Assembly (NCBI RefSeq): GCF_005222225.1
Contig: NZ_CP036536.1
Span: 2,008,001-2,072,000, forward strand
Direction: 5' to 3'
DNA from: Salinimonas lutimaris
GTDB taxonomy: Bacteria; Pseudomonadota; Gammaproteobacteria; Enterobacterales; Alteromonadaceae
Length of the DNA stretch: 64,000 bases
The notes under the pieces were generated by a model, which saw only the letters and a list, made by a program, of their open reading frames with translations, was not told the origin of the DNA and made no database searches. Positions 52,097 through 57,986 of the stretch are shown in pieces; positions within the stretch are counted from its first letter, which is position 1, and each line of letters starts with the position of its first letter. Both the position numbers and the translations under genes were made by a program.

Positions 52097-52120
52097 AAAT
52101 AGCCGGTTAGCCGGCTATTT
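52097..52120. terminator. Bidirectional terminator between dgcA and tus
   Basis: Perfect 10-bp stem AAATAGCCGG / CCGGCTATTT with a TTAG loop, A/T-flanked; it overlaps the last bases of tus on the opposite strand. Confidence 0.87.
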
Positions 52121-52990
52121 CAGCTTTTGATACAAATGCATGCGAGGTACTACCAGTTGCCAGTTGGCAGTGTGAGTCTGAGGTGGTTTACGCACATAAT
52201 CCTTTAGCGTCGTGACCCTTGGCTTTTCGGTAAAACCGGTAAGGATAAAAGGAAGTCCTGCGCTATAACCGAGCATTTTGTTTTCTTTATCTCTTACCGA
52301 GCACTCAGGCCGCAGTTTAATCGGGCGGCGAACGCTGAGTTTTGGTTGCATGACCTCGCTCACTTTTTGAATATCCGCATCAAGCAGGGCGTACCATGAC
52401 TCCCGGGTATGGTTGGCTGGAATCGTAGCGCGGGCCCGTTCCAGTTTGTCCAGCCAGTTCTGGCGCGTATCGGATTCTACTCTGGGGCGGCGCGACCAGT
52501 TAAAATAAAAGGCTTTGTAGTCACCGTTAAAATGATAGATTTTACGATAGGCCATGGTGGTGATGAGGTAGTTAAACCTGTCGTGCACCTCGAAAAATTT
52601 TTCATCCGGCCCGTCAAATTTCTGTACTTCCTGTTTAAATGCCTGTTTTGCCTGGTTCAGTGCTGTCAGCGTTGGCTCTACAATAGTAGCTGGACAGGAC
52701 AGGGGAAGAATACCGGGATATTTCTGCACGAACCGTCGGCTCAGATCATTATTAAACACATACATATCCTGAAAAGCCTCGATACCGGTTTCAACCGCCT
52801 CTTCTCCCGTCAGTGTAGTCACTGGAATAACATCGTAATCGTCATCAATGATTTCCTGTTCTTCTTCTTTACTGATGCGGGGCAATGAATAAACCACCGC
52901 CTGGTCAGTCATCACATACTGACGAACCAGCTTAGTCAGGGCCTGAGTGTGGCTTTCTATTTCATTCATGTAGTAACGGAGTAGATTCAT
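52115..52990 (-). CDS. tus: DNA replication terminus site-binding protein Tus homologue
   Basis: Probable replication-fork trap protein that binds Ter sites and blocks DnaB helicase from one side. 291 aa (E. coli 309). Matches along the chain include VVYSLPRISKEEE, YPGILP, FEVH..LITTMAYR, SVRRPIKLRPECSV and the C-terminal VVPRMHLY (E. coli IIPRLHLY). Two residues of the cytosine-6 lock pocket are kept: F132 and H136, aligning with E. coli F140 and H144; V78 replaces I79. Start set at ATG 52990, which gives the E. coli spacing to the VxSLP motif; no clear ribosome site. A LexA-type box and a Ter-like word lie upstream. dif is about 5 kb away. Confidence 0.88.
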   Translation of the reverse strand: MNLLRYYMNEIESHTQALTKLVRQYVMTDQAVVYSLPRISKEEEQEIIDDDYDVIPVTTLTGEEAVETGIEAFQDMYVFNNDLSRRFVQKYPGILPLSCPATIVEPTLTALNQAKQAFKQEVQKFDGPDEKFFEVHDRFNYLITTMAYRKIYHFNGDYKAFYFNWSRRPRVESDTRQNWLDKLERARATIPANHTRESWYALLDADIQKVSEVMQPKLSVRRPIKLRPECSVRDKENKMLGYSAGLPFILTGFTEKPRVTTLKDYVRKPPQTHTANWQLVVPRMHLYQKLK

Positions 52991-53007
52991 AACAATGTAT
53001 TGATGTA

Positions 53008-53027
53008 TACTGTTTGCATATACAGTA
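53008..53027 (-). promoter_or_regulatory. LexA-type SOS box in the tus promoter
   Basis: TACTGTTTGCATATACAGTA has the CTGTN8ACAG core and matches the E. coli 20-bp SOS consensus at 17 of 20 positions. It is 18-37 bp upstream of the tus start codon, so a bound LexA would block transcription. Nearest rightward gene starts 360 bp away. Confidence 0.7.
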
Positions 53028-53041
53028 CACCTAAACATACT
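53025..53041 (-). promoter_or_regulatory. Candidate Ter site upstream of tus
   Basis: Minus-strand AGTATGTTTAGGTGTAC shares AGTATGTT with E. coli TerB (AGTATGTTGTAACTAAA) and sits 35 bp before the tus ATG, where E. coli TerB lies for tus autoregulation. The right half does not match, so this is a weak candidate. Confidence 0.35.
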
Positions 53042-53386
53042 GCTTTTCGACTTTTTCGCGACAAAAAGCCTGACAATACGGCGACTTATCACTTCTAAAA
53101 TAATACCCAGCATTTATTACGGCACCATACCCTATAATGTAATTCAAGTTACGCCGCTACGCGGCGGGGTAGTCAGGAGCATCCGGCTAAAAGTTATCCA
53201 GCGCAGCTGTGCATTTTCCTCACTATGTGTTTGTTTTATAAACATAAGGTTCTCGCACGCTGGCTATTTGTCTCGCCGCATTGACGCTTTGCCGAAAACA
53301 CAGCCCCTGACTCATGGGCTATATTGTAATGCCGCAGGATTATTGAGAATCTTGCCGGATTATTCATGCAATAGGACCAAAGGCGA

Positions 53387-55015: not shown

Positions 55016-55384
55016 CTACTTTGTATCAGTACTCCGCACGTGCAGCGGAAAAGTGTCAAAGGTCACGCCATCATGGCCACCAACCATAAAATTTCGGATG
55101 TTCGCATGATCGTTACCTTGCGGATTCTCAAGCACATCGCGAGTGTAAAAACGGCCGAATAAAGCCAGAGTTTGGGATTTATCCAGCGCCAGATGACGGC
55201 CCAGTGCCAGTAACTTACATGAGCCATGGTTCTGGTCAGCATCATTAATCACGCTGCCATTCGTAAAGCGCGTCGGTGTAAACAAAAACTGAGTGTCAAT
55301 CAGCGCTATTACATCATTAAATTCTATGTTCTGTGAGTTGCTTTTTATATCTTCAAGCAGTTCAGTGGTGTCACGGTAGCGCAT
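55016..55384 (-). CDS. HopJ-family protein
   Basis: 122-aa soluble protein of the 'HopJ type III effector' family, which is widespread in free-living gammaproteobacteria with no type III secretion; the cellular role is unknown. Motifs: IEFNDVIALIDTQFLFTPTRF, NGSVINDADQNHGSCKLLAL, ALFGRFYTRDVLENPQGNDH and NIRNFMVGG. Start overlaps the 60-codon ORF upstream (TAATG), and both follow the recombinase gene. Confidence 0.87.
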   Translation of the reverse strand: MRYRDTTELLEDIKSNSQNIEFNDVIALIDTQFLFTPTRFTNGSVINDADQNHGSCKLLALGRHLALDKSQTLALFGRFYTRDVLENPQGNDHANIRNFMVGGHDGVTFDTFPLHVRSTDTK

Positions 55385-55601: not shown

Positions 55602-56660
55602 CTAACGATTTCTGTTTTTGGCCAGCTTAGCCATTCCACCATGGCCCACATTGGCCTGTTGACTATAATGCCCTGGCATTTCAGGAGAATTCCAACCACC
55701 GGCCAACTGCATCTCGGGCAGTGTAGCACCATTTTCTGCCAACGACACGGCGCCGCCAACCCGACCACTGTGCGGTGTAATATTTTCTTTAATCCCGGCA
55801 AGATCGGCAATTCGTCGCCAAACCCTGTATATAGAAGAGTATTCCAGAATCGGTGAATGCTTGCCTTGCAAGCTTTCGTCATAAGGGAGCAGGGCATGTC
55901 CACGATTCGAAACCCGCCTGAATAGTATGCCATTATTCAACCGGCGGGGATCCGTGGTCTCACGTTCAGTTTGTCTGGCACGATTAAAATTAGCTTCACT
56001 GATATATTCATCAATCATCGCAACCGTACTGTTGGAGATATAGCGATAAGAACCCTTACCGGCTTGGTCAGCTTTAGAGGTAATAATAAGAAGTGCATTG
56101 TTGCGTTTGTTTATATGCTCCAGGCGTATTCGTACTAGTTCATCGGCACGTAGCAACGCATCAAACATCAGGTTGATAATAGCAAGATCTCGCATTTCCA
56201 GTAAGGTATCAGGAATTACGGCATCATTGATTTTTTCCAGAATATCCAGTGTCAGCGGTACTGCCTGGTGGCTGCTCAGCTGATACTTTTCATTTTCTGC
56301 CAAACTCAGCTTTATAAAATCTTTCAGATACACCGACTGCACAATCGGATTAGGCAACTGAGCAATTCCCAGAAACTTACTTAATGCGCTGAGCCTGCGT
56401 TTTATGGTTCTGTAGGCAAGGGGACTTTGACAAAGCACTTCCACATAGCGCTTTACGCAATGCTCATTATCCTGCATCGAATCAGTGAAACCAGGCAGAT
56501 TTTCCTGGTCGCAGAATATCGCAAATTCATTGAAATCACTCACATAAGCACGCTGCGTATTGCGGGGTAACTTTGTAAATATATCGTTAAAATAGCGGCT
56601 GACCGCTTCTTTATATACGGTTACAAAGCCATGCTGAGAGGAGATTAAAGCGCTGGTCAT
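55602..56660 (-). CDS. Tyrosine recombinase/integrase near dif
   Basis: 352-aa site-specific recombinase. N-terminal SAM-like core-binding domain (about 15-110: NTQRAYVSDFNEFAIFC, YRTIKRRLSALSKFLG) and catalytic domain with Arg in LLRADELVRIRL, HSGRVGGAVSLAENG (H-x-x-R), GGW and the nucleophile Tyr in GHYSQQ. It is not XerC or XerD by length and motif form. First gene of a recombinase-60-aa-hopJ operon 1.3 kb left of dif; upstream DNA carries a large hairpin and a LexA-type box. Confidence 0.9.
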   Translation of the reverse strand: MTSALISSQHGFVTVYKEAVSRYFNDIFTKLPRNTQRAYVSDFNEFAIFCDQENLPGFTDSMQDNEHCVKRYVEVLCQSPLAYRTIKRRLSALSKFLGIAQLPNPIVQSVYLKDFIKLSLAENEKYQLSSHQAVPLTLDILEKINDAVIPDTLLEMRDLAIINLMFDALLRADELVRIRLEHINKRNNALLIITSKADQAGKGSYRYISNSTVAMIDEYISEANFNRARQTERETTDPRRLNNGILFRRVSNRGHALLPYDESLQGKHSPILEYSSIYRVWRRIADLAGIKENITPHSGRVGGAVSLAENGATLPEMQLAGGWNSPEMPGHYSQQANVGHGGMAKLAKNRNR

Positions 56661-56782: not shown

Positions 56783-56875
56783 ACCGACTAATAGCGTCCT
56801 TTTTGACCATTATTTACGATCGTCTTTTCCACTTTACGGTTCTTTAAGAACACCGAAGTGCCCTTTTTACCAAGA

Positions 56876-56891
56876 CTGTATAAGTATACAG
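56876..56891 (-). promoter_or_regulatory. LexA-type SOS box upstream of the recombinase operon
   Basis: CTGTATAAGTATACAG has the CTGTN8ACAG core; extended to 20 bp it matches the SOS consensus at 17 positions. It lies 216 bp upstream of the recombinase start, farther than usual, and within an unproven 50-codon frame. Confidence 0.5.
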
Positions 56892-57051
56892 TATATGGTG
56901 ATTTACTCAATTTATGTCGATACTGTTGAATACAAAACAAGCGGGAAGGCGTATTAACTGTGATTATTGGCCCATCACCACAGCATCATTTTGCCTTTGC
57001 AGCTGACTAAATTTCATAAGAATGAGCAAAAATAGCGCTATTATCACAGCG

Positions 57052-57958: not shown

Positions 57959-57986
57959 ATTTAACATAATATACATTATGCGCAAT
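57959..57986 (-). other. dif site (XerCD recombination site; chromosome terminus)
   Basis: 28-bp site. On the minus strand the XerC half-site TGCGCATAA, spacer TGTATA and XerD half-site TTATGTTAAAT are all identical to E. coli dif; only the two outermost XerC-side bases differ (AT for GG), giving 26 of 28. XerD half-site on the left, XerC half-site on the right. It is in gene-free DNA, and KOPS words on both sides point toward it. Confidence 0.96.

What the first reader, a model, noticed from the sequence alone, without database searches (positions are those of the whole stretch)
52115..53041. A Tus replication-fork-trap homologue about 5 kb from dif in an Alteromonas-like genome
Tus is best known from Enterobacterales. 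This 291-aa protein keeps the C-terminal PRxHLY end, the RRPIK segment and the Phe/His pair of the cytosine-6 lock. Its closeness to dif suggests a chromosomal fork trap outside the classical group. A TerB-like word (AGTATGTT at 53034-53041, minus strand) sits where E. coli TerB autoregulates tus.
Basis: partly seen in the sequence, partly recalled or inferred. Interest (0 to 1): 0.82.

Follow-up and report, generated by a model that had tools for sequence, protein, structure and literature searches.

The report
LexA-boxed Tus fork trap around dif
This marine bacterium seems to stop its two DNA-copying machines in a small zone opposite the origin, using a distant relative of the E. coli Tus protein, stop sites with a new sequence, and a switch that probably raises the protein when DNA is damaged.

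Summary
The Tus homologue is real (52115-52990, minus; PF05472 E=1.8e-47) and dif is exact at 57959-57986. Footprinting four relatives that keep tus beside dif gave a 15-mer, GGTATGGTGCCGTAA (window 53117-53131, minus).

In the 4.12-Mb chromosome its copies within one mismatch are this site, left of dif on the minus strand, and two right of dif on the plus strand. The three other chromosomal-tus genomes match: 11 of 11 sites point away from dif, the polarity of E. coli TerA/TerC/TerB, and two positions across dif are orthologous between species. This is strong sequence evidence for a Tus-Ter fork trap with its own Ter sequence.

Unlike E. coli, tus carries a LexA box (perfect core in 9 of 15 examined non-Pseudoalteromonas family loci, 0 of 20 Pseudoalteromonas), and 8 of 11 chromosomal sites have a GC-rich hairpin on the predicted blocking side. 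Pseudoalteromonas has another word, GTATGATGTGTTC, near its chromid tus and also around dif of the main chromosome. Tus binding, fork arrest and SOS induction are inferred.

The parts
52115..52990 (-). tus homologue, 291 aa, stop codon included
   Evidence: PF05472 E 1.8e-47; E. coli Tus in phmmer and Foldseek
53008..53027 (.). LexA box TACTGTTTGCATATACAGTA, 17 bp before the tus ATG
   Evidence: one of two perfect TACTGTN8ACAGTA in the genome; the other lies between a UmuD-like and a YebG gene; perfect core in 9 of 15 examined tus loci of the family outside Pseudoalteromonas
53117..53131 (-). Ter1, GGTATGGTGCCGTAA, upstream of tus on the same strand, pointing away from dif
   Evidence: longest word shared by four upstream regions, 15 bp against at most 7 in 200 shuffles; oriented copies across dif
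53153..53165 (-). short GC-rich hairpin GCCGC-GTA-GCGGC on the 5' side of Ter1
   Evidence: same element beside Ter2a at genome 2138869
57959..57986 (-). dif
   Evidence: exact match to the 28-mer pattern
55602..56660 (-). tyrosine recombinase between tus and dif; marker of the conserved neighbourhood, no part in the trap claimed
   Evidence: Phage_integrase 1.5e-17; 83-86% identical in G019, G015 and G043

Best explanation
This is one arm of a chromosomal Tus-Ter replication fork trap. Tus made from this gene binds a 15-bp site of new sequence (NGTATGGTGCCGTAA). One copy lies beside tus, almost exactly opposite oriC; two copies lie across dif, 73-74 kb from it, in the opposite orientation (genome 2138904 and 2139856, outside the window). 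Forks enter the dif zone past the permissive face of a site and are stopped at the blocking face of the far site, so both forks finish around dif. tus is probably repressed by LexA, so more Tus would be made under DNA damage. Shown here from sequence: the gene, the sites, their number, orientation, conservation and orthology, and the LexA box. Inferred: Tus binding to these sites, the cytosine lock, fork arrest and SOS induction.
For: Tus by profile, sequence and fold. The 15-mer is the longest word shared by four otherwise unlike upstream regions (15 against at most 7 in 200 shuffles). In the four genomes with tus beside dif, 11 hits at up to one mismatch, 11 of 11 pointing away from dif; without the four that defined the motif, 7 of 7, all within 80 kb of dif. 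The backward control gives 1 hit in these four genomes. Two far positions are orthologous between species. Same orientation as E. coli TerA, TerC and TerB around dif. Three genomes with this Tus lineage, or a near one, off the chromosomal locus (G008, G016, G058) carry the word near that tus. GC skew peaks between Ter1 and dif. All seven members of an rpoB clade (support 100) carry this Tus lineage.
Against: No binding or arrest data. Only GTATG-TG is shared with E. coli Ter. Over all 59 genus genomes the word is no commoner than its backward control (31 against 32 hits); the excess is confined to tus genomes. One of 43 genomes without PF05472 has an exact copy (G006). S. profundi (G030) has tus of this lineage but no such word within 1.4 kb upstream, and its one hit is on another contig. 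NCBI equivalog cut-offs for Tus are not reached (109 of 323 and 87.9 of 178.3 bits). The structure model is weak (pLDDT 59.5), lowest in parts that include residues 132-143.
Confidence: 0.85

Rival explanations
1. The oriented 15-mer is a site for another terminus protein (a MatP-, FtsK- or Xer-accessory-like factor), and Tus here has a different target or none.
For: Binding of Tus to the word was not tested. Oriented words around dif are also known for other factors such as KOPS (recalled).
Against: The word lies beside tus in four of four chromosomal loci and near tus on three further replicons. It shares GTATG-TG with E. coli Ter, and other Tus lineages (Pseudoalteromonas, g52, g11) have their own words around the same core near tus. 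It is too rare (2-4 copies a genome) for KOPS.
Confidence: 0.08
2. The tus gene is a mobile, plasmid-type passenger that happens to sit near dif and has no role in chromosome termination.
For: tus is patchy in the genus (16 of 59, ten of them strong) and found on plasmids of Salinimonas, Alteromonas and relatives.
Against: Same neighbourhood beside dif in four species, Tus tree order as in rpoB, and chromosomal Ter positions conserved across dif.
Confidence: 0.07
3. The palindrome before tus is not a LexA box but part of a Tus-controlled or other promoter, so tus is not SOS-regulated (E. coli-like autoregulation through a Ter instead).
For: Ter1 is upstream of tus on the same strand in four of four chromosomal loci. 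At one mismatch the LexA pattern is as common as its backward control in the genome (13 against 13 places).
Against: Ter1 lies 105-261 bp before the start codon at varying distance, while the palindrome keeps a place close to the start. The same palindrome precedes recA, dinB and a UmuD-like/YebG pair in this genome.
Confidence: 0.2

Closest known systems
Enterobacterial Tus-Ter fork trap, type I (Edwardsiella, Dickeya; PMC8707476 and PMC10331603, passages read)
   Same: Tus-family protein; a Ter beside tus that blocks one replichore; one or a few Ter of opposite orientation across dif; GC-skew switch inside the trap
   Different: Ter sequence diverged beyond GTATG-TG, whereas the Ter next to tus in the Enterobacterales examined there are 74-83% identical to TerB; Ter1 is upstream of a LexA box and not close to the start codon; hairpin beside most sites; in A. 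indica a one-mismatch site lies inside Ter1
E. coli Tus-Ter trap, type II
   Same: Orientation of sites around dif and of the tus-side Ter relative to tus
   Different: E. coli has many Ter sites and TerB in the tus promoter (papers); no LexA box before E. coli tus and no 5' hairpin at TerA, TerB, TerC (0 of 3)
Pseudoalteromonas chromid tus (PMC6549158, PMC7858055, passages read)
   Same: Alteromonadales Tus; own Ter word with the GTATG-TG core
   Different: tus is next to the chromid origin, not dif; different word; no LexA box in 20 of 20 loci
Bacillus subtilis RTP fork trap (named in the papers read)
   Same: Polar sites around the terminus
   Different: Unrelated dimeric protein and different sites

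Membership tests
Tus / Ter protein family (PF05472) | Profile match over the curated cut-off across the whole length | tested here: met
   162 bits, cut-off 22, residues 4-287
Tus / Ter protein family (PF05472) | Tus fold | tested here: met
   the only four PDB matches below E 0.001 are Tus, TM 0.70-0.72, from a weak model
Tus / Ter protein family (PF05472) | Phe/His pair of the cytosine-6 pocket | tested here: met
   Phe132 and His136 invariant in the six-protein alignment; a Tyr replaces the neighbouring E. coli Gly; which residues form the pocket is recalled
NCBIfam Tus equivalogs (NF002810, TIGR02648) | Score over the equivalog cut-off | tested here: not met
   109 of 323 and 87.9 of 178.3 bits: a distant homologue, not filed as the same equivalog
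Tus / Ter protein family (PF05472) | Sequence-specific Ter binding and lock | not testable with these tools
   needs binding assays
Tus-Ter replication fork trap | Ter sites in opposite orientation on the two sides of dif, with blocking polarity towards the outside | tested here: met
   11 of 11 sites in four genomes
Tus-Ter replication fork trap | Fork arrest dependent on tus | not testable with these tools
   needs replication profiling
Type I fork trap | The Ter beside tus is the innermost on its side | tested here: inconclusive
   true in G000, G019 and G043; in G015 a one-mismatch word lies between dif and Ter1
Resident tus (criteria of PMC6549158) | Conserved genomic context and distribution congruent with the species tree | tested here: met
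   same context in four species, same order in rpoB and Tus trees; in three other clade members tus is elsewhere, so residence holds for part of the clade
SOS regulon | LexA box at the promoter | tested here: met
   box of the kind found before recA, dinB, UmuD-like/YebG
SOS regulon | LexA binding and induction by DNA damage | not testable with these tools
   needs expression and binding assays

The most novel reading that the evidence does not exclude
The trap is damage-responsive: LexA holds tus low in normal growth and SOS raises it, so the terminus is closed to escaping forks mainly when forks are broken or over-initiated. This circuit and its Ter word were shared between plasmids and the chromosome of this clade. 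In Pseudoalteromonas the same kind of system works in trans, a Tus made by the chromid trapping forks around dif of the main chromosome.
Probability: 0.5. Interest if true: 0.85.

Novelty: new variant of a known kind. Interest (0 to 1): 0.74.

Why it matters
PMC6549158 (passages read) counted three groups with resident tus; this adds a candidate fourth, on a main chromosome and beside dif. PMC7858055 (passages read) reports that a search with the E. coli consensus found no ter near the expected chromid terminus of P. tunicata; the words found here give testable Ter sequences for Pseudoalteromonas and for part of the Alteromonas/Salinimonas group. Naturally diverged Tus-Ter pairs that share only GTATG-TG can show which bases the lock needs. 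A LexA box on tus makes the open question of what fork traps are for directly testable.

Tried and rejected
AGTATGTT at 53034-53041 as TerB analogue: rejected (8 bp, not in the shared footprint, no extended E. coli Ter). The 2-mismatch hits of the 15-mer (447221 and 2164038): not counted, since the backward control gives more hits (12 against 5) and 2164038 looks coding by eye. A general folding signal around the sites: z-scores mixed, not special; only the specific short hairpin stands out. Defence link: no PADLOC family. Viral carriers: 134 candidate stretches, none encoding a relative. Ter words for the Tus lineages of G011, G029, g16 and g5: no convincing word near tus, left open; the six weak PF05472 loci of the genus (L011-L016), the fragment L017, and the matches that got no locus were not examined for sites or LexA boxes. 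Structure: one AlphaFold job with 5 sequences gave a weak model; the second job was not used. dif on C1 of G302 rests on a 2-mismatch match and of G313 on a 1-mismatch match.

Full report
What was checked. The ORF at 52115-52990 (minus) encodes 291 aa and is a Tus relative by profile (PF05472, 162 bits, E 1.8e-47), by sequence against solved structures (E. coli Tus 1ecr, E 1.1e-11) and by fold (the four PDB matches below E 0.001 are all Tus, TM 0.70-0.72; the model itself has mean pLDDT 59.5). It does not reach NCBI's equivalog cut-offs. dif is exact at 57959-57986. The genome is one contig of 4,123,530 bases; the window is 2,008,001-2,072,000. dnaA is at the contig start, so the point opposite is about 2,061,765.

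Where tus sits in relatives. PF05472 matches 16 of 59 genomes of the genus, ten strongly (over 120 bits) and six weakly, and 37 of 345 genomes drawn from the family, 20 of them of genus g19. I take g19 to be Pseudoalteromonas because the tus place of G313:C2 ends at the same base as that of Pseudoalteromonas sp. NC201 NZ_CP022523. Of 16 flanking loci compared, three (G019 = A. lipotrueiana and G015 = A. indica, named by contig; G043 unnamed) keep tus in the same neighbourhood as the window, with the same tyrosine recombinase between tus and dif (dif of G043). In an rpoB tree of 57 genomes of the genus plus one outgroup (G048 and G057 had no rpoB match; G053 had an internal stop and was kept), these four and G008, G016 and G030 form a clade with support 100, and all seven carry this Tus lineage. 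In G016 (S. iocasae) tus is on a 348-kb plasmid; in G008 and G030 (S. chungwhensis, S. profundi) it is on contigs of 22 and 54 kb without the chromosomal neighbours. The Tus tree groups the four chromosomal proteins (84/90) in the same order as rpoB.

Finding the site. The 420 bp upstream of tus in the four genomes are mostly unalike but share GGTATGGTGCCGTAA exactly. The longest common word in 200 dinucleotide shuffles was 7. In the own genome the word occurs exactly twice, at 2,061,117 (minus, beside tus) and 2,139,856 (plus), and once with one mismatch at 2,138,904 (plus). Two 2-mismatch hits are at control level and are not used. Across the genus at up to one mismatch (59 genomes, 31 hits), the four chromosomal-tus genomes hold 11: G000 3, G019 2, G043 2, G015 4. 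With dif at 2,065,959 (G000), C45:42,497 (G019), 1,821,717 (G043) and C4:110,098 (G015), every one points away from dif: minus on the low side, plus on the high side. Leaving out the four that defined the motif it is 7 of 7, all within 80 kb of dif. The other 20 hits: 12 in the 43 genomes without a PF05472 match (one exact, G006), 6 near tus in G008, G016 and G058, one each in G005 and G030. The pattern read backwards gives 32 hits in 59 genomes by my count, none in G000, G019 or G043 and one in G015. So the word as such is not commoner than chance in the genus; its excess is in the tus genomes and at the terminus.

Conservation across dif. Genes beside the far sites show that G019, G043 and G015 (104,806) share one orthologous far position, and G000 (2,138,904) and G015 (33,621) another. 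The three own-genome sites lie outside the ORFs listed around them (ORFs running off a stretch are not listed). Trap widths between innermost sites are about 78 kb (G000), 16 kb (G043), 22 kb (G019) and 9 kb (G015; 10.5 kb to Ter1).

Polarity. In E. coli MG1655, fetched as a control, TerA is on minus left of dif, TerC and TerB on plus right of dif, and TerB is on the strand of tus. The layout here is the same. That E. coli forks are blocked when they run in the direction of the written Ter word is recalled. In the own genome the cumulative GC skew over 380 kb peaks at 2,062,593, between Ter1 and dif, as if forks usually meet there.

Relation to E. coli Ter. The word keeps GTATG-TG, and with it the G that pairs with the lock cytosine (position recalled), but differs from TerB beyond that core. 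Other lineages have their own words around the same core: AGTATGTTGTAATTA in g52, GGTATGATGTATTCA in g11, and GTATGATGTGTTC in Pseudoalteromonas.

LexA box. TACTGTTTGCATATACAGTA lies 17 bp before the tus ATG. The genome has only one other perfect TACTGTN8ACAGTA, between a UmuD-like (Peptidase_S24) and a YebG gene; one-mismatch boxes with an intact core precede recA, dinB and a 115-aa ORF that resembles SulA by eye but has no Pfam hit. At up to one mismatch the pattern is no commoner than its backward control (13 against 13 places), so the evidence is which genes carry it, not the count. CTGTN8ACAG within 80 bp upstream of the match start occurs in 9 of 15 examined tus loci of the family other than Pseudoalteromonas, with one mismatch in two more (G019, G043); it is absent from the other 4, from 20 of 20 Pseudoalteromonas and from E. 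coli. The chance density in 380 kb of the own genome is about 0.003 per 60 bp. Several of the nine are close relatives, so they are not nine independent cases; the chromosomal box is perfect in G000 and has an intact core in G015 only.

Hairpin. A short GC-rich hairpin lies on the 5' side of most chromosomal sites, in six of them as GCCGC-N3/4-GCGGC starting at -34 to -38. It is present in 8 of 10 sites scanned; an eleventh (G015 113,689) has none, so 8 of 11. None of the 10 has one on the 3' side. 5'-side controls: Pseudoalteromonas 0 of 42 and 0 of 7, E. coli 0 of 3, words in genomes without a strong tus 1 of 13, plasmid sites 2 of 6 and further away. GCCGCNNNGCGGC occurs 12 times in G000, 14 in G043 and 3 in G019, of which 2, 2 and 1 are beside Ter sites. 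Overall counts are like those of the backward control (11, 13 and 5), so the word is not enriched as such, only placed. At the orthologous far site of G043 and G019 the stems differ but both pair (GCCGC/GCGGC, GTCGC/GCGAC), while the ortholog in G015 has none. Many of these sites are orthologous, so independent cases are few, and folding energies of the flanks are not unusual overall. What the hairpin does is unknown; shielding the site from incoming transcription is a guess.

Plasmid-type replicons. G016:C2, G008:C21 and G058:C2 carry two words each, pointing outward, with starts 303, 304 and 274 bp apart (one word of the pair has one mismatch in G008 and G058), roughly 1.2-1.8 kb upstream of tus. 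That geometry would fix the meeting point of forks within about 300 bp (inference). S. profundi (G030) has no such pair.

Pseudoalteromonas. GTATGATGTGTTC is near tus in 20 of 20 loci. In five genomes of two contigs there are 21 exact copies: 14 on the smaller contig and 7 on the large one; the backward control had none. All 7 lie within 34 kb of dif and point away from it: both sides in G332 and G313, one side only in G253, G381 and G302, where a matrix scan of the surrounding 200, 200 and 100 kb found no second site. dif in G313 and G302 rests on 1- and 2-mismatch matches, and one shuffle of the G313 region scored nearly as high (29.0) as its two sites (30.3 and 32.2). So a chromid-made Tus may act on the main chromosome. 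PMC7858055 (passages read) states that no ter was found near the expected chromid terminus of P. tunicata with the E. coli consensus; PMC10331603 (passages read) marks the chromid ter with a question mark.

Literature. Eight searches of the held library listed no paper whose title or abstract start reports Alteromonas or Pseudoalteromonas Ter sequences or LexA control of tus. Passages of five papers were read (PMC7858055, PMC3025954, PMC6549158, PMC10331603, PMC8707476); the other listed papers, among them two that hold 'tus gene', 'LexA' and 'SOS regulon', were not opened, and most subscription journals are not held.

Mechanism, with status. Shown: a Tus relative; a rare, conserved, oriented site around dif in four species; a LexA box. 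Inferred: Tus binds it, blocks forks running in the direction of the word, and rises in SOS. I rate the trap at 0.85, and SOS control of tus in this genome at about 0.6 on its own.

Noticed in passing
Pseudoalteromonas G332, G313, G253, G381, G302, large contig C1 (loci L196-L235): Seven exact copies of the chromid Ter-like word GTATGATGTGTTC on the main chromosome, all within 34 kb of dif and pointing away from it, although tus is on the chromid.
   Followed up: partly
L024 8082 and 8385; L022 17743 and 18047; L025 7713 and 7987: On plasmid-type replicons two Ter words point outward about 300 bp apart, upstream of tus.
   Followed up: partly
window 56874-56893 (and L111 2825, L018, L019): A CTGTN8ACAG palindrome lies 225-233 bp before the tyrosine recombinase next to dif in the window, G019 and G015, and at a like place in G043; why so far upstream is unclear.
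   Followed up: partly
L055 (genus g52) and L054 (genus g11), upstream of tus: Pairs of Ter-like words of opposite orientation: AGTATGTTGTAATTA (close to E. coli Ter) in g52 and GGTATGATGTATTCA in g11.
   Followed up: no
L067 1501 (G006:C12:116650): An exact copy of the Alteromonas 15-mer in a genome without tus; could be chance.
   Followed up: no
L017 / G008:C20:117-329: A broken second tus fragment in S. chungwhensis, with a stop inside.
   Followed up: no
window 55016-55384 (-): A 122-aa protein matching Pfam HopJ (6.5e-41), a family name that says little about its role in this marine bacterium.
   Followed up: no
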